Below are positions 25,354 to 34,841 of a stretch of DNA of 64,000 nucleotides, one piece after another. Positions within the stretch are counted from its first letter, which is position 1. Each line of letters opens with the position of its first letter. The stretch comes from Sulfurospirillum halorespirans DSM 13726 (lineage in GTDB: Bacteria > Campylobacterota > Campylobacteria > Campylobacterales > Sulfurospirillaceae), in the NCBI RefSeq assembly GCF_001723605.1, contig NZ_CP017111.1, forward strand, positions 1,302,001 through 1,366,000. The letters run 5' to 3'. Below the pieces are notes generated by a model. The model was given only the letters and a program-made list of their open reading frames with translations, had not been told where the DNA came from and searched no databases. Position numbers and translations under genes: made by a program.

Positions 25354-26481
25354 ATGTGTTTGACATATGCGACAGCAGAAGCGACTTATAATTTTGCTAA
25401 ACGTTTTGCGCACTATAAAGATTTTTATGCCAGACACAATGGGCTTATCTTTTCAAAGCTTGGGTTCGGAACCTTTAAAAAAGAGCCGTATAAAGAAGAA
25501 AATTACATATTTGATTACAAAGAGGCGCTCAAAACGGCCATTAAAAGTGGCGTGAATGTGATCGACACCGCCATCAACTACCGCTATCAACAAAGCGAAC
25601 GTGAAATCGGGGAAGTGCTTGAAGAACTCTTTGCACGTGATGAAGTCAAACGTGAAGAGCTCATTATCTGTTCTAAAGGGGGCTTTGTTCCGCTTGATTT
25701 TCCGTTTCCTGCAAATCCTTATGAGTGGATTAGTGAGCATATTATTCAAAAGGGTTTAGCGACAACGCAAGACATCGAGCTGGATCAGCACTGTATGACA
25801 CCCGCTTTTTTAAAAGACTCTCTGGATCGCTCACTGTCTAATTTACATGTAGAGTGTTTGGACATCTATTTTTTGCACAATCCTGAAACGCAACTCACAC
25901 GCATCGGCTATAACCATTTTTTGAAAAAGCTCGAAGAGATTTTTGCTAGTTTTGAAGAGCATGTGCGTGAGGGAAAGATCAAATCGTATGGCATTGCTGT
26001 GTGGAACGCTTTTACCTACGAAGAGGGCAATAGCGAGTACATTAACCTCGAAGATGTCTATGATGTCGCTTGCCTCGTGGGCGGATCTAATCATCATTTT
26101 AAGTACATCCAACTGCCTTTTAATATCGCTAAAACCAATGCCTACAGTGTGCCAAACCAAAAAATGCGCGATGGCAACTACTACACACCCTTGCAAGTGG
26201 CGCACAAACTGGGTCTTGGCGTCATGAGCAGCTCTTCGTTGTTACAGATGCACCTGTTTCAAAAACCGTTTAAGCCTGAAGTTGGGTATCTGCTCGATTC
26301 AAAAATGGAGCTTCAAAGCGATGTTCAACTCGCCCTTCAGTTTGTACGCTCGACCAGAGGCATCATCACGTCACTGTTTAGTTCAAGCAAAAGTGAACAC
26401 GTGAGCAGTAATCTTAGTATTGCTTCTATTCCTGCGACTAACAGTGCTAAATACAACCTTCTTTTCAAAGTGGAGCGATAA
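25354..26481 (+). CDS. Aldo/keto reductase
   Basis: A 375-residue TIM-barrel oxidoreductase of the AKR superfamily. LGFGTFKK, the catalytic Asp/Tyr segment NVIDTAINYRYQQSEREIG, the Lys in ICSKGGF and the later LDIYFLHNPE fit the family. It should reduce carbonyl compounds with NAD(P)H. It is followed one base after the stop by a flavoprotein gene, and then nifT, so it is the first gene of a small island rather than an isolated gene; its physiological substrate is unknown. Confidence 0.9.
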   Translation: MCLTYATAEATYNFAKRFAHYKDFYARHNGLIFSKLGFGTFKKEPYKEENYIFDYKEALKTAIKSGVNVIDTAINYRYQQSEREIGEVLEELFARDEVKREELIICSKGGFVPLDFPFPANPYEWISEHIIQKGLATTQDIELDQHCMTPAFLKDSLDRSLSNLHVECLDIYFLHNPETQLTRIGYNHFLKKLEEIFASFEEHVREGKIKSYGIAVWNAFTYEEGNSEYINLEDVYDVACLVGGSNHHFKYIQLPFNIAKTNAYSVPNQKMRDGNYYTPLQVAHKLGLGVMSSSSLLQMHLFQKPFKPEVGYLLDSKMELQSDVQLALQFVRSTRGIITSLFSSSKSEHVSSNLSIASIPATNSAKYNLLFKVER

Positions 26482-26482
26482 T

Positions 26483-28120
26483 ATGACATACGACGTGCTC
26501 ATCATAGGCTCAGGCATCGCAGGTCTGATGGCAGCGATTGAAGCCAAGAGTGAAACCAACAGCGTTGCGATTATTACCAAAAGCAATATCTTTAAATCCA
26601 ATAGTTCGGTTGCGAGTGGTGGTATCAACGCTGTTTTAGATGAAAAAGATGAGGTCGAGATTCAAAAACACATCGATGATACGATGAAAAGCTCCAAAGA
26701 TTTGGGCGATAAAAAAGCGATCAGCTACCTGTGCCATCAAGCGCCTTTGATTATGAAAAAATTGGTCGAATACGGTGTTGCGTTTGATCGCGATGTTAAT
26801 GGGAAGATATTGCAACGCAGTTTTGGAGGCGGAAGTTCCAAACGCACCTGTTTTGTGGGCGATAGCACGGGCTCTGCGATCACACAAGCGCTGATTAAAA
26901 AAGCAAAACTGGTCGGCGTTGATTTTTTAGTCAACCACTTTGTGATGGACATTACCAAAATAGATGAGTACATCAGTGGCGTGGTGACGCTTAAAAAACT
27001 GGACTCTACGGTCGTTGTTTATCCCACTAAAGCAGTTGTCTTTGCAGGTGGCGGCTACGCAGGTATTTACAGAGGTTTTAGCACCAATGCCCAAGACTGT
27101 ACGGGGGATCTTTTAAGTGTTGCCCTTCGTGCTGGCATGAGCCTTAAAGATATGGAGTTTGTGCAGTTTCACCCCACGGGATTTGCCAAGACCAGTTATT
27201 TGGTCTCCGAAGCGGCGCGGGGTGAGGGTGGATACCTTGTCAACGCGGATGGAGAGCGTTTTGTCAACGAGCTTGGCACGCGCGATGTCCTTGCACGCGC
27301 CATTTTTGAGCAGATGCGAAGTGGCAAAAAAGTCTACCTTGATATGCGTCATATCTCCAAAGAGATTTTAGAAACACGCGTTCCTTCTTTGTATAAAAAT
27401 GCGTACAATCAAGTCGGCATTGACCTCTCCACGGAACTTTTAGAGATCAAACCTGTTGCACACTACAGCATGGGAGGCATCGCTTCTACGATGACTTCCA
27501 GTGAAGTTAAAGGTCTGTTTATCTGCGGTGAAAGTGCTGCCCTTGGGGTGCATGGCGCAAACCGATTGGGTGGAAATTCTCTCTTAGAAGGGGCTGTTTT
27601 TGGCGAACTTGCGGGTAAAAAAGCCAAAGAGTATGCGTTCAATAAAGAGTTCCTACCGATTGATTACAATGTGGTCATTAGAAATATGGATTTGGTGCAA
27701 CGCATTTTTGATGGAGATTGCTCCAAAAACTTTAACGCGATGCGTATTTCTGTGGGTAAAATCATGTTTGATAAAGCAGGAATTTTTCGCAATGAAAGCT
27801 CTTTGCAAGAAGCATTTGACTATATGAAATACCTCCGCTTGGAGTCCAATACGCTTCACTGCATTGATAAAAGTAAGCACAATAACGTTGAGCTGATTTC
27901 GATTTTAGAACTGCGCAATGCGTTGGAACTGAGTGAAGCGATCATCCTCTCTGCGATGCAACGCGCAGAGAGTAGGGGGGCGCATTTTAGGGAGGATTTT
28001 GCCTTTACATGTAAAGAGGGAAATCGCCATGTTTTCATTAAAGAGCTCCAAAAAGGGTTCTTTAAAGTGCACTACGAAGAGGGCGGATTGACCAAATGGC
28101 TCAAAAAAATTTTAACATAA
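26483..28120 (+). CDS. SdhA/FrdA/NadB-family FAD flavoprotein
   Basis: A 545-residue soluble flavoprotein with the dinucleotide site LIIGSGIAGLMAAIEA, an SSVASGGINAVLD FAD contact, the substrate-site motif FVQFHPTG, ARGEGGYLVNADGERF and GANRLGGNSLLEGAVFG. It belongs to the fumarate reductase/succinate dehydrogenase/L-aspartate oxidase group. No signal peptide, and no classical iron-sulfur SdhB or quinone-binding gene is adjacent. The nearest candidates are the cysteine-poor SdhB-like and HdrB-like genes 4 kb to the right. It could be an L-aspartate oxidase for NAD synthesis, but its position before nifT argues for a special role. One TTTACATGTAAA lies at 28004. Confidence 0.87.
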   Translation: MTYDVLIIGSGIAGLMAAIEAKSETNSVAIITKSNIFKSNSSVASGGINAVLDEKDEVEIQKHIDDTMKSSKDLGDKKAISYLCHQAPLIMKKLVEYGVAFDRDVNGKILQRSFGGGSSKRTCFVGDSTGSAITQALIKKAKLVGVDFLVNHFVMDITKIDEYISGVVTLKKLDSTVVVYPTKAVVFAGGGYAGIYRGFSTNAQDCTGDLLSVALRAGMSLKDMEFVQFHPTGFAKTSYLVSEAARGEGGYLVNADGERFVNELGTRDVLARAIFEQMRSGKKVYLDMRHISKEILETRVPSLYKNAYNQVGIDLSTELLEIKPVAHYSMGGIASTMTSSEVKGLFICGESAALGVHGANRLGGNSLLEGAVFGELAGKKAKEYAFNKEFLPIDYNVVIRNMDLVQRIFDGDCSKNFNAMRISVGKIMFDKAGIFRNESSLQEAFDYMKYLRLESNTLHCIDKSKHNNVELISILELRNALELSEAIILSAMQRAESRGAHFREDFAFTCKEGNRHVFIKELQKGFFKVHYEEGGLTKWLKKILT

Positions 28121-28384: not shown

Positions 28385-28422
28385 TTTCAACTATAATATT
28401 TTAAACAGATAAAGGAGTGCAA

Positions 28423-29820
28423 ATGGTTGCATTTGATGCTAAGTGTGGGGATTGCCTCACCACCAGAGAACTAATGACACTCTATGAGACAGCAATGGTT
28501 GTCTCTAACTCACTTGATTTAGTTGCATCGCTTGAAAAAGCATTAATGATTTTAAAAAATAGATTGCATCTTGAAAAATGCGTAATTCACACGCTGGGTG
28601 AAGAAAATATTTTAACGATTTACGCCTGTATCGATTTTAGTAAGCACCAAAAAGAGCTTGCCACGTATAAATTGGGTGAGGGCGCGACTGGTTTTGCGGC
28701 TGAGAGTAAAGAGCCTGTTGTGATTGAAAATTTACACAACGATATGCTCTTTCTCAATAAATCAGGCAATCGTGACCAAAATGCGATCTCGTATATCGCC
28801 GTTCCGATGCTCGTTGATCAAGAAGTGATCGGTGTTTTAGGGGCGAATATTACCAAAACAACGGCGATTGACTTTGAAAGTACGATTCGTGTTTTGACCA
28901 TTTTAAGCTCTATCTTTGCACAGTCTATTCGCTCACATGACATCAATCTCAAAGAAAAAGAGCGTTTAAAAGAGCTTAAACTCTACTACAAAATGGAGTG
29001 GGACTCCAAGGTACACAATTTTGGAGACATCATTGGTGAGAGTCCAAAGATGAAAATGGTCTACAACGTCGTGGAGCGCATTGCGGAGAGCAATGTCACC
29101 GTTTTGGTACGAGGTGAGACGGGGACGGGAAAAGAGCTCGTCGCTGCTGCGATTCACAAGCGTTCCAAACGTCGCGAAGAGCCTTTTGTGAAGCTAAACT
29201 GTGCCGCCATCACCGATACGCTCATTGAGAGTGAACTTTTTGGGCATGAAAAAGGGGCGTTTACCGATGCGAAAGAGGCACGCAAAGGTCGTTTTGAACT
29301 CGCTGATGGTGGAACACTCTTTTTGGATGAAATCGGCGATATTTCAGCCTCTGCGCAGGTGAAATTGCTTCGTGTTTTACAAGAGCGCGAGTTTGAGCGC
29401 GTCGGTGGAAGTAAGACCGTTAAAGTCAATGTCCGCCTTGTTGCGGCAACGAACCGAAACCTTGAAGAGATGGTCAAAAATGGTACCTTTAGGGAAGATC
29501 TTTACTATCGTTTGAATGTAATACCCATTGATTTGCCGCCGCTTCGTGAGCGTGGTGATGATATTGCGCTTTTGGTCAATTTCTTTTTGCAAAAATCGAT
29601 GAGCAACCATAAAAAACGTATTGTCATTACCGATGAAGCGATGGAAATTCTGTGCCAATACACATGGCCTGGAAATGTGAGAGAGCTTGAAAATACGGTT
29701 GAACGTATTGTGTTAATGGGCAGTGAAGACGGCATTAGTGCCGATGAGATGCTGCTTATGCTTCCCGCTTTTAATCAAAAATTGATGTGTCAGAGAAGGA
29801 TCATGAGTGAAGAAGAGTGA
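28423..29820 (+). CDS. NifA-like sigma-54 activator lacking the DNA-binding domain
   Basis: A 465-residue protein. Residues about 25-165 form a GAF sensor domain. The AAA+ sigma-54 interaction domain (about 195-425) is complete, with Walker A GETGTGKE, the sigma-54 contact loop GAFTDA, Walker B GGTLFLDEIGD and the arginine finger region. After PGNVRELENTVERIV only about 35 residues follow, without the helix-turn-helix seen at the C-terminus of NifA. AAAGGAG precedes the ATG at 28423. It lies after nifT, so nitrogen-fixation control is likely. Without a DNA-binding domain it may act from solution, as FlgR does in Helicobacter. It overlaps the next gene by 14 bases. Confidence 0.85.
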   Translation: MVAFDAKCGDCLTTRELMTLYETAMVVSNSLDLVASLEKALMILKNRLHLEKCVIHTLGEENILTIYACIDFSKHQKELATYKLGEGATGFAAESKEPVVIENLHNDMLFLNKSGNRDQNAISYIAVPMLVDQEVIGVLGANITKTTAIDFESTIRVLTILSSIFAQSIRSHDINLKEKERLKELKLYYKMEWDSKVHNFGDIIGESPKMKMVYNVVERIAESNVTVLVRGETGTGKELVAAAIHKRSKRREEPFVKLNCAAITDTLIESELFGHEKGAFTDAKEARKGRFELADGGTLFLDEIGDISASAQVKLLRVLQEREFERVGGSKTVKVNVRLVAATNRNLEEMVKNGTFREDLYYRLNVIPIDLPPLRERGDDIALLVNFFLQKSMSNHKKRIVITDEAMEILCQYTWPGNVRELENTVERIVLMGSEDGISADEMLLMLPAFNQKLMCQRRIMSEEE

Positions 29821-30637
29821 TTTTGAAAAAGAGATTAAAGAGGGTCGTTTAGTTCCATTCCTCGGAATGGGTGTTTTTAAAGAGACGAAAACAGAGGAGG
29901 GTGGACAGATTCCCTTTGATAGTGACTCCATGATCTTAGCACTCAATGGCGGTCGTGCGATGTCGCCTCGTTTGATGTATGAGTATTCCAGAGCTGCTAT
30001 GAGTTTGGAACAACGCAAAGGGAGAGCGTTTATCGAGCAGATGACGAACCATATTTTCACGGCAAAGCCTTACCCCATGCCAGAAGTGTATATGTGGCTT
30101 AAGACGTTAATGCCTCGCTATGTGGTTGATCTCAATTTGGATGATTCATTGTTGAAACTTTACGCGGATCAGGATCATTTTCTTATCACGGGTGTAAGCC
30201 GTATTATGGCAGGATATGATCGTTTTCTTGTTTACATGTACACCGTTTCGACGGGTGAATATCAGCGTGTGGAAAAAGAGCTTTTAAGTCCAATGTTGCC
30301 TATTCTTTTTAAACCACTCGGCTGTACGGTGCCTGAGAAAAGCTTTATCATCAGCGATGCCGATTTTGTCGATTGGTTGACCGAAGCGATGGGTGGGTAT
30401 GCACTTCCTCCGTTTTTGAAGACGTTTAAAAATGACAAAAGTTATCTCTTCTTAGGGATTGATTTTGATCGCGATACGTATCGTATGGTGGCAAATGAAG
30501 TGACCTTAGGATTAAAAGATGGCTATTTGGTCAACGATAAAGAGAAGATCAGCAAAAAAGAGGAGAAGTTTTTGAGTGGTCATAAGATCGAAAAACTTGA
30601 AATGTCACTTGCAGATTTTTTAAAAGCTACCGAATAG
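29807..30637 (+). CDS. SIR2-like domain protein
   Basis: A 276-residue protein starting with GTG, with GAAGGA upstream inside the end of the nifA-like gene. The N-terminal RLVPFLGMGVFKE resembles the nucleotide-binding GAGxS loop of SIR2-fold proteins, and RYVVDLNLDDSLLKLY resembles their TTNxDxLLE strand. The catalytic His of deacetylating sirtuins is not obvious. SIR2-like proteins can bind or cleave NAD. Translational coupling to a NifA-like regulator suggests it reports a cell signal to that regulator, but this is inference. It ends at a strong stem-loop. Confidence 0.65.
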   Translation: MKKSDFEKEIKEGRLVPFLGMGVFKETKTEEGGQIPFDSDSMILALNGGRAMSPRLMYEYSRAAMSLEQRKGRAFIEQMTNHIFTAKPYPMPEVYMWLKTLMPRYVVDLNLDDSLLKLYADQDHFLITGVSRIMAGYDRFLVYMYTVSTGEYQRVEKELLSPMLPILFKPLGCTVPEKSFIISDADFVDWLTEAMGGYALPPFLKTFKNDKSYLFLGIDFDRDTYRMVANEVTLGLKDGYLVNDKEKISKKEEKFLSGHKIEKLEMSLADFLKATE

Positions 30638-30694: not shown

Positions 30695-31087
30695 CTACTC
30701 TTCAACACTCACTTCAACAGGATCACTTTCCCAAACACCGTGTTTTGTACAGTAACTTTGTGCCACAAGGCTCAGCTTTTTACCCGTTGGAACGATGGTA
30801 AATGTGACCTCTGCCTGTCCTTTTTTATCTTGTCCACCCAGGGTTCCAGAGATAAAATCAGCGCGCGCTAAAAGTGCATCCCCCGTATAAAGCTGGATAT
30901 TAGCGATGTAGTGGTCGAAATCATCAGGATGCGTATAAGCATTACCCACTTTTACAGTGACTTTAAACGGCGCATTTTGTTTTGCCGTAGCAGCACAGGT
31001 GATAAACGGAGAGTGTCTATCGATATAATCTTTCTTAGCTTCTCTCTCAACGGTGTCAATATCAACATAACGATTGATTTTTGGCAT
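30695..31087 (-). CDS. Superoxide reductase-like (class II, neelaredoxin-type) protein
   Basis: A 130-residue protein with ligands of the SOR centre in order: His25 (DRHSPF), His53 (AYTHPDD), His59 (FDHYIANI), Cys113 and His116 (SYCTKHGVW). There is no N-terminal rubredoxin-type domain, so it is the one-iron class. Such proteins reduce superoxide to peroxide without making oxygen, which suits protection of oxygen-sensitive enzymes next to nif genes. The usual Glu/Lys pair near the active site is not clearly present; the AKDYIDRHSP segment differs from the EKHVP consensus, so activity is not certain. Confidence 0.75.
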   Translation of the reverse strand: MPKINRYVDIDTVEREAKKDYIDRHSPFITCAATAKQNAPFKVTVKVGNAYTHPDDFDHYIANIQLYTGDALLARADFISGTLGGQDKKGQAEVTFTIVPTGKKLSLVAQSYCTKHGVWESDPVEVSVEE

Positions 31088-31224: not shown

Positions 31225-32070
31225 TTAAATAAGCGTAATAGCGACTTTGTGTTGCTCAAGCCCAATGCTTTTTTTATTCGTCTCTACAAAAGCTAAGAGA
31301 AGCAGTTCGGCAAGGCTTAAGACACTGAGACCTATTTCACGTCCTGCGGTTTTCTCCAGCTCTTTTTGGTAAAAATCAAACAAGATAAAACTTCGTGCAT
31401 CACTGGTCAGTACAAAATCTGCGGCATTATCGAACATATCAAGCATCGCTTTGGAGGCGAGTTTTTTGGCAAGAAGGGGTGAGGCACTGTAGACTTCAAA
31501 ACCATCACTCTCATAGGTACTTTCGTGTTTGACCCTTTTAAGTTTGATGAGATCCAGCAGTTGTAACAGTAGCGCTTCTTTTCGGTATTTTTTAGCACGA
31601 CATGCGTTTGAGCCTAAGAAAAGGGCTGCTTGAAAGTTTGTAAAGGGATTTTTCACCAAACTTGCTAGTTTTTCCACGCCGACTTCTTCAAGCAGCAGTT
31701 GTTCTAAAGAGAGAACATTCACTTCTAAATTGAGTGATACATTGTGTTTTTCCAAACGCTGTGCGATCTCAAATTTCAGATTAGCATCGTTTAAAAGTAG
31801 CTCTTTGGTGTGCGCATGACAAATGAAAGAGCTCTGCTCAATGCAGACAATATCGCGTTTTTCCGTAGCGGCAAGGGTAAGATTGTACGCATAATGCTCT
31901 AAAAATTTAAGACGATCCAGTCCCATAAATTCGCTTCCAAGATCATTTTTTGCCCCTTTGAGCGCGGGCGCATCGATGCCTAAGAGTTCGATCAGTTTTC
32001 GAGCAGCCGTGATCATTGGGGCTGTTTTTTCACGCTCGATGAGGGATTCAAAAAGAAAATAGTTTTTCAT
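31225..32070 (-). CDS. HdrB/SdhE-like protein without CCG cysteines
   Basis: A 281-residue protein whose layout follows HdrB/SdhE: a YFLFESLIERE start where the family has YxPGCSLE, an internal IVCIEQSSFICHAHTKELLL, then VLSLEQLLLEEVGVEKLASLVKNPFTNFQAALFLGSNACR, and VLTSDARSFILFDFYQKEL near the end. The two CCG motifs that bind the noncubane [4Fe-4S] clusters are replaced (for example by YSASPLL). Only four cysteines remain, scattered. It is therefore a degenerate, probably structural, relative. It lies 9 bases after an SdhB-like gene that has likewise lost its cysteines. Confidence 0.65.
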   Translation of the reverse strand: MKNYFLFESLIEREKTAPMITAARKLIELLGIDAPALKGAKNDLGSEFMGLDRLKFLEHYAYNLTLAATEKRDIVCIEQSSFICHAHTKELLLNDANLKFEIAQRLEKHNVSLNLEVNVLSLEQLLLEEVGVEKLASLVKNPFTNFQAALFLGSNACRAKKYRKEALLLQLLDLIKLKRVKHESTYESDGFEVYSASPLLAKKLASKAMLDMFDNAADFVLTSDARSFILFDFYQKELEKTAGREIGLSVLSLAELLLLAFVETNKKSIGLEQHKVAITLI

Positions 32071-32079
32071 GGTTTCTCC

Positions 32080-32757
32080 TTACAAAAGATCGAGGTGGTG
32101 TGAAAATTTTTCCACAAGAGGGTTCAAAAAGGGTCGGTGTTTCATCACGTCATTTTTAAGCTCCGTGATCTTCTTCTCAACTTCCGCGCCACAAGGGTAA
32201 ATTTTCGTGCACAATCTTACATGTAAAAAGATTCCGCTCTGATCGTTTGCAATCACTTCTAAAATCTCACGTTTGCGTTCTGGGTGTTTTTGAATCATAT
32301 CGTACGCAAAGGCAAACAGGGCATCGCCTTGGTAATTTTCAAGTAAATCCAGCACGCTTGAAGCGTAGTAGTAGATGATGTAGTGCGCATAAAGGGGTCT
32401 GTCTTTACCATCCACAAACGCATCCAAAAGATCAAAACGTTGGTAAAAATCGTCCGTATTAATGATCATATCTTTGATGACACGCTTGGTCGAAAGAGGC
32501 TCTAGGGTGAGTGATTTTCCAAAGGAGTTGATAAGTCCGTCTATGGAGACATTGCTAAAAAGTGCTTTTCCGTTAATTTTCAAAGCAGCCAAGTCACCTT
32601 TTGGGTAGTCAAAACTGACATCTTCGGCTTTGATCTTTAAAAGAAGATCATTAAGCGTTAGACTTCGATCGATGGTTATAAAATGTTTTTTATAATAAGG
32701 CAAAAAATCCGTTTTAGCGTCAAATCGAAAGACGCTCAACTCAAGCTTACACTCCAT
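32080..32757 (-). CDS. SdhB-like protein without iron-sulfur cysteines (DUF5644-type)
   Basis: A 225-residue protein that follows the succinate dehydrogenase/fumarate reductase iron-sulfur subunit from end to end: KLELSVFRFDAKTDFLPYY is the beta-grasp start, AALKINGKALFSNVSI occupies the CGSCAMxINGxxxLAC region, LTLEPLSTKRVIKDMIINTDDFY the next, and FLHVRLCTKIYPCGAEVEKKITELK the NCTEVCPKG end. Nearly all cluster cysteines are gone; only Cys183 and Cys189 persist. This suggests a structural or regulatory paralogue. I believe it corresponds to the epsilonproteobacterial DUF5644 family, from memory. It sits upstream of the HdrB-like gene. Confidence 0.65.
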   Translation of the reverse strand: MECKLELSVFRFDAKTDFLPYYKKHFITIDRSLTLNDLLLKIKAEDVSFDYPKGDLAALKINGKALFSNVSIDGLINSFGKSLTLEPLSTKRVIKDMIINTDDFYQRFDLLDAFVDGKDRPLYAHYIIYYYASSVLDLLENYQGDALFAFAYDMIQKHPERKREILEVIANDQSGIFLHVRLCTKIYPCGAEVEKKITELKNDVMKHRPFLNPLVEKFSHHLDLL

Positions 32758-32913: not shown

Positions 32914-33738
32914 ATGTCAAAAGAGGCATTTTTTATCTCAGAATTTTCCAGCAAACGCATTGGCGACGACGGTGCGGTTGTGGGGGATTTTGTCTATTCA
33001 AAAGATCTGTTTTGCGAAGGTATTCACTTTAAGCGTTCGTGGATGAGTTTAACGCAGATCGCGCAAAAAAGCATGCTGGTCAATATCTCCGATGCCATTG
33101 CGATGAATGCCAAACCCACGTTAGCACTAATTGGGGTTGTGATACCCAAATCGTTTTCGTACGAGCAGCTACGTGAATTGGGTGTGGGGTTTCAAAAAGT
33201 AGCACAAATCTACGGTGTTGAGATCATCGGTGGCGATACTACCGCGGGCGAAAAGTTGATGATCTCCATCACCATCATCGCCAAACGCCCTTCCAAAGTG
33301 CTCTACCGAAGTGGCGCGAAGCTAGGTGATTTGGTTGCGTATACAGGAACGCTTGGAAAGTCACACAAAGAGCTGACACGGCTGATGCGTGGTGGAACTG
33401 TTGGCAAAGATGCGCGGTTTATGAAACCTGATTTAAAAGCGCAGTTTATCTATAAGGCTACGAAGCATTTAAACGCAGGGATGGACATCTCCGATGGACT
33501 CTCCAAAGACCTCTCAAGACTGCTCAAAGCCAGTGGCAATTTGGGTTTACATGTAAAGCGTAAAATGCCCAAGAAAACGCTCTGCAGTGGCGAAGAGTAC
33601 GAGATGCTATTCACCTTTGATTCCCGTAAAAAAAAGGCGATAGAGCGCATTGCTAAGCAGACACGCACAAAAATTACTATTATTGGCAAAGTAGCGCGTA
33701 AACGTTATGCTTGTCATTGTAAAGAACACCATTTTTAA
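32914..33738 (+). CDS. thiL: Thiamine-monophosphate kinase, ThiL-like
   Basis: A 274-residue protein with IGDDGAVV, VNISDAIAMNAKPTLALIGV, GGDTTAGEKLMISIT, GLSKDLSRLL preceded by GMDISD, and SGEEYEMLFT, all ThiL motifs. It phosphorylates thiamine monophosphate to the active diphosphate. It is somewhat shorter than E. coli ThiL (325 aa), lacking part of the C-terminus, as in other epsilonproteobacteria. It lies directly before truD. The thiD-cytX-thiM operon and its TPP riboswitch are 7 kb away. Confidence 0.9.
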   Translation: MSKEAFFISEFSSKRIGDDGAVVGDFVYSKDLFCEGIHFKRSWMSLTQIAQKSMLVNISDAIAMNAKPTLALIGVVIPKSFSYEQLRELGVGFQKVAQIYGVEIIGGDTTAGEKLMISITIIAKRPSKVLYRSGAKLGDLVAYTGTLGKSHKELTRLMRGGTVGKDARFMKPDLKAQFIYKATKHLNAGMDISDGLSKDLSRLLKASGNLGLHVKRKMPKKTLCSGEEYEMLFTFDSRKKKAIERIAKQTRTKITIIGKVARKRYACHCKEHHF

Positions 33739-33755
33739 CCATTTTAAGGACATCT

Positions 33756-34841
33756 ATGATTCGACAATTTTTTCTCACCCATTCGCCCATTAATGCGATG
33801 TTTACCAAAAATAGCAGTGACTTTGTGGTCAGTGAAATTCCTCTGTATCCTTTCAGTGGCGAGGGCGAGCATCTCGTTTTACATGTAAGAAAAAAAGATA
33901 TGACAACATGGGATATGTTGCAGTATTTAAGCGAAGTCACAGGCTGCAAAGTACGTGATTTTGGGTATGCAGGGCTTAAAGACAAAGATGGCATGACGAC
34001 ACAGTACATTTCACTGCATAAAAATTTCGAGCCAAAACTTGCCAATTTTACGCACGATAAGATCAAAATACTCGATACGACCTACCATAACAACAAAATC
34101 CGCACAGGGCATCTTAAGGGCAATCGCTTTTTTGTCCGTCTTAAAAAAGTCAACCCAATTGATGCACGAAAACTTCAAGACGGGCTGAAAAAGATCAGCA
34201 AAGAGGGTTTCCCCAACTTCTTTGGGTACCAACGTTTTGGCATCGATGGCGATAACTATGTTAAAGGTAAGGCAATTTTAGAGGGGAAGCGCAAAGAGCA
34301 CAATCATAAAATGAAAGAGTTTTTCATTAATGCTTATCAAAGTTATCTTTTTAACAACTGGCTTTCCAAGCGCATCGAAATCAGCCGTTTGATAGAAGAG
34401 TTTAACTTAGCGGATGCAACACGTGCAACGAATTTACCTAAAGAGATGGTCGATAGCCTTAAAAAACAGCCACAATTCTTCAAACTCCTTCACGGAGATG
34501 TTTTGCATCATTACCCTGCGGGAAAAGCATTTGTGTGCGAAAATGTGGAAGAAGAGTTACCGCGCTTTTTGGAGCATGGCATTACCATTGCAGGTTGGTT
34601 ACTGGGTGGTAAAAACATCCGAGCAGAGTATGAAGCAGGTGTGATTGAACAACAGATTTTTGAAGAGTGTGAACCTTTCTTAGACAAACTCAATGGAAGC
34701 AGACGTTTTGCGTGGAGCTTTGCAGAAGATGTTGAGGGCGTTTATAAAGAGGAAGAGGCATGGTTTGAAATGCACTTTTCATTGCCTAAAGGCTCGTACG
34801 CGACGGTTATTATAGAAGAGCTAATAAAAGTTTCGCTATAA
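33756..34841 (+). CDS. truD: tRNA pseudouridine synthase D
   Basis: A 361-residue TruD protein. The catalytic region FGYAGLKDKDGMTTQYISL contains the Asp of the KD motif, and GNRFFVRLKK, FPNFFGYQRFG and NAYQSYLFNNWLS are conserved TruD segments. It converts uridine 13 of tRNA-Glu to pseudouridine. Its stop codon overlaps the -10 hexamer of the RNase P RNA gene. A TTTACATGTAAG near-copy is at 33878. Confidence 0.95.
   Translation: MIRQFFLTHSPINAMFTKNSSDFVVSEIPLYPFSGEGEHLVLHVRKKDMTTWDMLQYLSEVTGCKVRDFGYAGLKDKDGMTTQYISLHKNFEPKLANFTHDKIKILDTTYHNNKIRTGHLKGNRFFVRLKKVNPIDARKLQDGLKKISKEGFPNFFGYQRFGIDGDNYVKGKAILEGKRKEHNHKMKEFFINAYQSYLFNNWLSKRIEISRLIEEFNLADATRATNLPKEMVDSLKKQPQFFKLLHGDVLHHYPAGKAFVCENVEEELPRFLEHGITIAGWLLGGKNIRAEYEAGVIEQQIFEECEPFLDKLNGSRRFAWSFAEDVEGVYKEEEAWFEMHFSLPKGSYATVIIEELIKVSL

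What the first reader, a model, noticed from the sequence alone, without database searches (positions are those of the whole stretch)
31225..32757. SdhB-like and HdrB-like gene pair stripped of iron-sulfur cysteines
The two adjacent proteins follow SdhB and SdhE/HdrB along their full lengths, but the cluster ligands are replaced: AALKINGKALFSN where SdhB has CGSCAMxING, and no CCG motifs in the HdrB-like protein. Both frames are intact and operonic, so selection keeps them as proteins without clusters. A SdhA-like flavoprotein lies 4 kb away. They may be a structural or regulatory shadow of the Mfr/Sdh complex.
Basis: partly seen in the sequence, partly recalled or inferred. Interest (0 to 1): 0.7.

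Follow-up and report, generated by a model that had tools for sequence, protein, structure and literature searches.

The report
Iron-sulfur-free copies of complex II subunits
Sulfurospirillum and most of its relatives, including the ulcer bacterium Helicobacter pylori, keep a copy of two electron-carrying respiratory subunits that has lost every iron-holding cysteine yet keeps its shape, so it probably now helps build or hold a respiratory enzyme instead of carrying electrons.

Summary
The two proteins are full-length SdhB and SdhE/HdrB folds: confident models (pLDDT 92 and 94) match SdhB/FrdB over about 200 residues and HdrB over 278 of 281 residues. All Fe-S ligands are gone: 1 Cys in 127 relatives at the 12 SdhB ligand columns, and no CCG motif in 114 HdrB-like relatives. 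dN/dS is 0.08-0.19, so they are maintained proteins. They belong to a known but unexplained family, DUF5644 plus HdrB-like_C; a fused H. pylori member has a crystal structure (3KWL) without a function. New here: the family has one origin, by duplication of the cytoplasmic, cluster-bearing SdhBE. In Sulfurimonas/Sulfurovum-type genomes it is the first gene of the sdhABE operon (truD-thiL | copy-sdhA-sdhB-sdhE-dfx). In Sulfurospirillum and Campylobacter sdhABE is gone from that place and the copy remains. It is therefore not an obligate Sdh/Mfr subunit. The SdhA-like protein 4 kb away is not its general partner. Best explanation (mechanism inferred, about 0.4): a cluster-free mimic of SdhBE that docks on the B-subunit face of SdhA/FrdA as an assembly or holding factor; the usual factor, Sdh5/SdhE, was found in 0 of 150 genomes of the class.

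The parts
32080..32757 (-). pB: 225-aa SdhB-like protein without cluster ligands (Fer2_3 + DUF5644)
32551..32589 (-). residues 57-69 AALKINGKALFSN, eroded [2Fe-2S] cluster loop (CxxGICGxCAxKxNG in the cluster-bearing paralogue)
31225..32070 (-). pE: 281-aa HdrB/SdhE-like protein without CCG motifs (HdrB-like_C)
31942..31947 (-). residues 42-43 (ND) at the place of the first CCG of SdhE/HdrB
   Evidence: alignment
31501..31509 (-). residues 188-190 (SDG) at the place of the second CCG; some relatives keep xCG
31375..31401 (-). residues 224-232 (DARSFILFD), replaces CPLCHLxxD; aromatic residues at or near former ligand positions
30695..31087 (-). neelaredoxin-type desulfoferrodoxin gene; follows sdhE in the ancestral locus and follows pE here
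32914..33738 (+). thiL, divergent neighbour that marks the conserved locus
33756..34841 (+). truD, second gene of the divergent marker pair

Best explanation
What it is (shown): a pair of cluster-free paralogues of SdhB and SdhE, born once in the Campylobacterota by duplication of the cytoplasmic sdhABE operon at the thiL/truD locus, kept under purifying selection, and fused into one chain in many Campylobacter, Arcobacter and Helicobacter. How it works (inferred): without clusters it cannot pass electrons. It keeps the fold and the non-ligand conserved residues of SdhB, so it probably still docks on the SdhB-binding face of an SdhA/FrdA-type flavoprotein, with the HdrB-like half as a lid or brace, and acts as an assembly or holding factor (FAD loading or covalent flavinylation, or protection of the unassembled flavoprotein) until the real B subunit takes its place. 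In Sulfurospirillum and Helicobacter, where the old SdhABE is missing, the client would be FrdA, which in this genome carries the FAD-binding histidine motif.
For: Full-length SdhB and HdrB folds. Total ligand loss with retention of the other SdhB-conserved residues (F10, R11, F12, D17, Y22, N62, E86, P87, D96, G144, G175). The cluster loop is among the least conserved segments tested (0.42, against 0.83 in true SdhB), while the b1-b2 and EPLSTKR..KDLII segments stay at 0.62-0.63. dN/dS 0.08-0.19. Single origin, support 100/100, on the branch with cytoplasmic SdhB rather than Tat-type MfrB, support 97/99. Adjacent to or first gene of sdhABE in at least ten genomes, touching sdhA in L058. SdhA of that operon and FrdA of this genome have the covalent-FAD motif HS.AAQGG. 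Sdh5/SdhE in 0 of 150 genomes while E. coli and Caulobacter controls ring. Published: SdhE binds FrdA on the same surface as FrdB, and loss of FrdB lowers flavinylation (PMC5773532; PMC9557727).
Against: No interaction or mutant data. Genera with FrdA but without this protein exist (for example g16, g18, g26), as do sdhABE loci without it (L135, L137, L139, L147), so it cannot be essential to either. Covalent flavinylation can proceed without a factor (PMC9557727). The docking face was not tested: no coordinates or multimer prediction were available. The HdrB-like half has no obvious role in flavin loading and is shortened in many lineages.
Confidence: 0.42

Rival explanations
1. A permanent non-catalytic subunit: it binds inside or beside complex II (SdhABE or FrdABC) as a structural pseudo-dimer partner, like other cluster-less pseudo-subunits of respiratory complexes.
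For: First gene of the sdhABE operon in several lineages, touching sdhA in L058 and 40 bp from it in L059.
Against: Present without SdhABE in Helicobacter, Campylobacter and Sulfurospirillum; absent from many genomes with SdhABE. The published Wolinella FrdABC structure (1QLB, listed) has no such subunit (own knowledge).
Confidence: 0.2
2. A repurposed scaffold with a function no longer tied to complex II, for example a regulatory or cell-envelope role.
For: Persists after loss of SdhABE; HP0468 (DUF5644) is on a list of proteins conserved in Helicobacter with sheathed flagella (PMC9570263) and is reported as induced by H2-enhanced growth (stated in PMC6090961). Evolves fast and the HdrB half shrinks.
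Against: Conserved residues are those of SdhB itself; the list in PMC9570263 is an association only.
Confidence: 0.25
3. Subunits of a local complex with the SdhA-like flavoprotein at 26420-28120 (a cluster-less Tfr/Sdh-like enzyme).
For: Both lie within 4 kb and in the same order in nine Sulfurospirillum-type loci; the flavoprotein has no Fe-S subunit beside it.
Against: Opposite strand, three genes between; orthologues of 49% identity or more in 101 genomes only in Sulfurospirillum and two distant genomes (G087, G102), whose only match to the B profile is at the level of true MfrB.
Confidence: 0.06
4. Decaying relics without function.
For: A few lineages show stops (G276) or a shortened copy (L123).
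Against: dN/dS 0.08-0.19, intact frames in nearly all genomes, conserved core residues.
Confidence: 0.02

Closest known systems
DUF5644 (PF18712) / HdrB-like_C (PF22196) family, with PDB 3KWL (H. pylori, fused, 514 aa) and HP0468 annotated as DUF5644
   Same: Same family: both Pfam models over cut-off, 3KWL a strong structural match for both proteins
   Different: Here two separate genes and a full-length HdrB half; no function has been assigned to the family
SdhB and SdhE of cytoplasmic SdhABE (non-classical type E succinate dehydrogenase)
   Same: Fold, order B-E, locus, conserved non-ligand residues
   Different: All cluster ligands lost; sdhA missing here
8-Methylmenaquinol:fumarate reductase MfrABE (Wolinella, Campylobacter; PMC2680327)
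   Same: Homologous B and E subunits; two MfrABE copies exist elsewhere in this genome
   Different: Mfr is Tat-exported, keeps its clusters and lies on another branch of the tree
TfrB of methanogens and HdrB
   Same: SdhB-HdrB architecture, as in the fused members
Sdh5/SdhE flavinylation factor (E. coli YgfY)
   Same: Proposed role: binds the SdhB face of SdhA/FrdA
   Different: Unrelated small protein; not found in this class

Membership tests
DUF5644 / HdrB-like_C (3KWL) family | Scores over the Pfam cut-offs of PF18712 and PF22196 | tested here: met
   46.1 bits against 25, and 46.2 against 33.4
DUF5644 / HdrB-like_C (3KWL) family | Fold of 3KWL | tested here: met
   pB Z 16.4 over 212 residues; pE Z 28.9 over 263 residues
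SdhB/FrdB iron-sulfur subunit | Two-domain SdhB fold | tested here: met
   Z 17-18 over 200-206 residues
SdhB/FrdB iron-sulfur subunit | Cys ligands of the three Fe-S clusters | tested here: not met
   none of the 12 conserved Cys in the window protein; 1 Cys in 127 relatives
HdrB/SdhE/MfrE | CCG-domain fold | tested here: met
   HdrB Z 32.6, 278 aligned, rmsd 2.2
HdrB/SdhE/MfrE | CCG motifs that bind the non-cubane clusters | tested here: not met
   0 of 114 relatives have CCG
SdhABE/Mfr complex component | Encoded with an SdhA-type flavoprotein | tested here: not met
   Not in the window; met in relatives such as L058, L114, L121, L138, L143
SdhABE/Mfr complex component | Physical association with SdhA/FrdA | not testable with these tools
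   needs multimer prediction or pull-down
Sdh5/SdhE flavinylation factor | PF03937 domain | tested here: not met
   No PF03937 match in either protein

The most novel reading that the evidence does not exclude
An apo-mimic of two electron-transfer subunits stands in for Sdh5/SdhE across most of a phylum: a dead SdhBE copy serves as the complex II flavoprotein's assembly or capping factor, and outlived the complex it was copied from.
Probability: 0.3. Interest if true: 0.8.

Novelty: new variant of a known kind. Interest (0 to 1): 0.6.

Why it matters
It explains where DUF5644 and the HP0468-type protein come from: DUF5644 corresponds to the SdhB C-terminal cluster domain without its clusters. 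It gives H. pylori and Campylobacter 'unknown' genes a testable link to complex II. If the mechanism holds, it shows how a respiratory subunit can turn into an assembly factor, and suggests how Campylobacterota mature covalently flavinylated FrdA without Sdh5/SdhE.

Tried and rejected
Pseudogene: rejected by dN/dS. Chance resemblance: rejected by fold and phylogeny. Tat-type Mfr as parent: rejected by the tree. NadB for the nearby flavoprotein: another gene in the genome (L152, 486 aa, C1:763573, flavin loop CNTFYAQGG) fits NadB better by length and motif; it was not scanned separately. The flavoprotein as general partner: rejected by distribution. 'No MfrB in this genome' was an artefact of the single-protein search: two MfrABE copies are present. 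A wide-alignment scan of genome contigs failed for lack of conserved stretches and was repeated with closer rows. Literature on HP0468 gave associations only; Cj1459 and Cj1460, my guess from memory for the C. jejuni genes, gave no paper.

Full report
The window lies in a 3.03-Mb Sulfurospirillum-like genome (Campylobacterota); its nearest named relatives are Sulfurospirillum genomes. The two genes of the finding are real, intact and 9 bp apart on the minus strand. I call them pB (32080-32757) and pE (31225-32070).

Identity. pB matches Fer2_3 at its N-terminus and DUF5644 (PF18712) at its C-terminus; pE matches HdrB along its length and the Pfam domain HdrB-like_C. Both match PDB entry 3KWL, a 514-residue H. 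pylori protein of unknown function in which the two halves are fused. Structure models from alignments of window and relative sequences are confident (pLDDT 92.3 and 94.3). pB matches SdhB/FrdB over its whole length (Z 17-18, 200-206 residues), pE matches HdrB (Z 32.6, 278 of 281 residues, rmsd 2.2), and both match 3KWL. DUF5644 aligns with the C-terminal two-cluster domain of SdhB.

Cluster loss. In a joint alignment of 127 distinct cluster-free B proteins with 27 cluster-bearing SdhB/MfrB, the 12 invariant Cys columns of the latter hold one Cys in all 127. Most of the 21 positions conserved in the cluster-free set carry the same or a similar residue in the cluster-bearing set (F10, R11, F12, D17, Y22, D37, N62, E86, P87, D96, G144, G175, I197 and others). 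For the E half, none of 114 has a CCG motif; a single Cys of the second CCG survives in about 10 of 114, and aromatic residues sit near the former ligands. The cluster loop falls from 0.83 conservation in true SdhB to 0.42, among the lowest of the segments tested, while the first hairpin and the EPLSTKR..KDLII segment stay at 0.62-0.63.

Selection. Pairwise dN/dS against Sulfurospirillum relatives is 0.085-0.19 for pB and 0.08-0.19 for pE, similar to thiL (0.09-0.14) and higher than truD.

Distribution. PF18712 is found in 156 of 298 genomes of the class. A profile of the B half finds 247 of 298, but that count includes true SdhB at weaker scores. The genome scan of about 85,000 species returned Campylobacterota or unassigned or broadly named MAGs, at the sensitivity of two short patterns. 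Forms: split pair (Sulfurospirillum, part of Campylobacter and Helicobacteraceae), fused with a shortened HdrB half (many Campylobacter, Arcobacter, Sulfurimonas), fused and about 500 aa long (Helicobacter).

Origin and locus. A maximum-likelihood tree puts all 35 cluster-free B proteins in one clade (100/100), joined with cytoplasmic SdhB and apart from Tat-type MfrB (97/99). The rooting is by one distant FrdB, so the exact branching inside the cytoplasmic SdhB group is open. Synteny explains the window: in L064, L114, L121, L126, L138 and L143 the order is thiL (with truD usually nearby, divergent), cluster-free copy, sdhA, sdhB, sdhE, mostly followed by dfx; L058, L059, L124 and L134 also have the copy before sdhA, and in L057, L133, L140, L141 and L144 it lies beside sdhABE on the opposite strand. 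The copy touches sdhA in L058 and is 40-215 bp from it elsewhere. In Sulfurospirillum the same frame is truD-thiL | pB-pE-dfx, without sdhABE; in Campylobacter truD-thiL | copy. The simplest reading is that sdhABE was lost and the copy kept. Other loci have thiL | sdhABE and no copy (L135, L137, L139, L147).

Inventory of this genome. SdhA-family genes: FrdA with FrdB (C1:551375), two Tat-type MfrABE sets (C1:913314 and C1:2706898), a probable NadB (C1:763573) and the window's flavoprotein. No cytoplasmic SdhA of the ancestral kind was found. The window's flavoprotein lacks the FAD-binding His (KSNSSVASGGI), and in 101 genomes its orthologues of 49% identity or more occur only in Sulfurospirillum and two distant genomes whose match to the B profile is at the level of true MfrB. 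It is not the general partner.

Is it a subunit of Sdh or Mfr? Not obligately. All 24 genomes of the H. pylori-type genus g19 carry it and none has a strong SdhE/MfrE match. Conversely many genomes with SdhABE lack it. FrdA/SdhA-type flavoproteins, by contrast, occur in 296 of 298 genomes.

Mechanism. Shown: fold kept, clusters gone, purifying selection, origin from SdhBE, operon with sdhABE in relatives. Inferred: docking on the SdhB face of a complex II flavoprotein. The published precedent is that the unrelated factor SdhE binds FrdA on the FrdB surface, and that loss of the Fe-S subunit lowers flavinylation (PMC5773532; PMC9557727). Sdh5/SdhE was found in 0 of 150 genomes tested in this class, with E. 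coli and Caulobacter as positive controls. A cluster-free SdhB would be a natural substitute. The weak points are that FrdA occurs in genomes without the copy and that flavinylation can be autocatalytic. I put the assembly or holding-factor reading at about 0.4, a repurposed unrelated role at 0.25, and a permanent structural subunit at 0.2.

Novelty. The family, its Pfam domains and one structure are known; its function is not, and I found no paper that describes its origin or operon link in the open library searched. Absence from that library is not proof that nobody has described it.

Noticed in passing
26420-28120 (+): SdhA-like flavoprotein without an Fe-S partner and without the covalent-FAD His (NSSVASGGI); scores between SdhA, TfrA and NadB models and under all cut-offs; orthologues only in Sulfurospirillum and two distant genomes.
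   Followed up: partly
28417-29820 (+): NifA-like sigma-54 activator (GAF, AAA+, lid) with no Pfam DNA-binding domain match; its end overlaps the next gene, a SIR2-like protein at 29807-30637.
   Followed up: no
30695-31087 (-): Neelaredoxin-type superoxide reductase gene; linked to sdhABE or to the cluster-free pair across Campylobacterota.
   Followed up: partly
L156, L157 (G000 C1:910500-918500 and 2703000-2711000): Two complete Tat-type MfrABE sets in one genome; their MfrA has SATTMAEGGI where FrdA has the covalent-FAD motif HSAAAQGGM.
   Followed up: no
L061, L062, L066-L069, L088-L112: In Campylobacter the cluster-free gene is followed by two conserved small genes (about 127 and 220 aa) and then flagellar genes.
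   Followed up: no
L169: In genome G071 an sdhABE-like set of another kind is followed by a second, 238-aa SdhB-like protein that matches MfrB.
   Followed up: no
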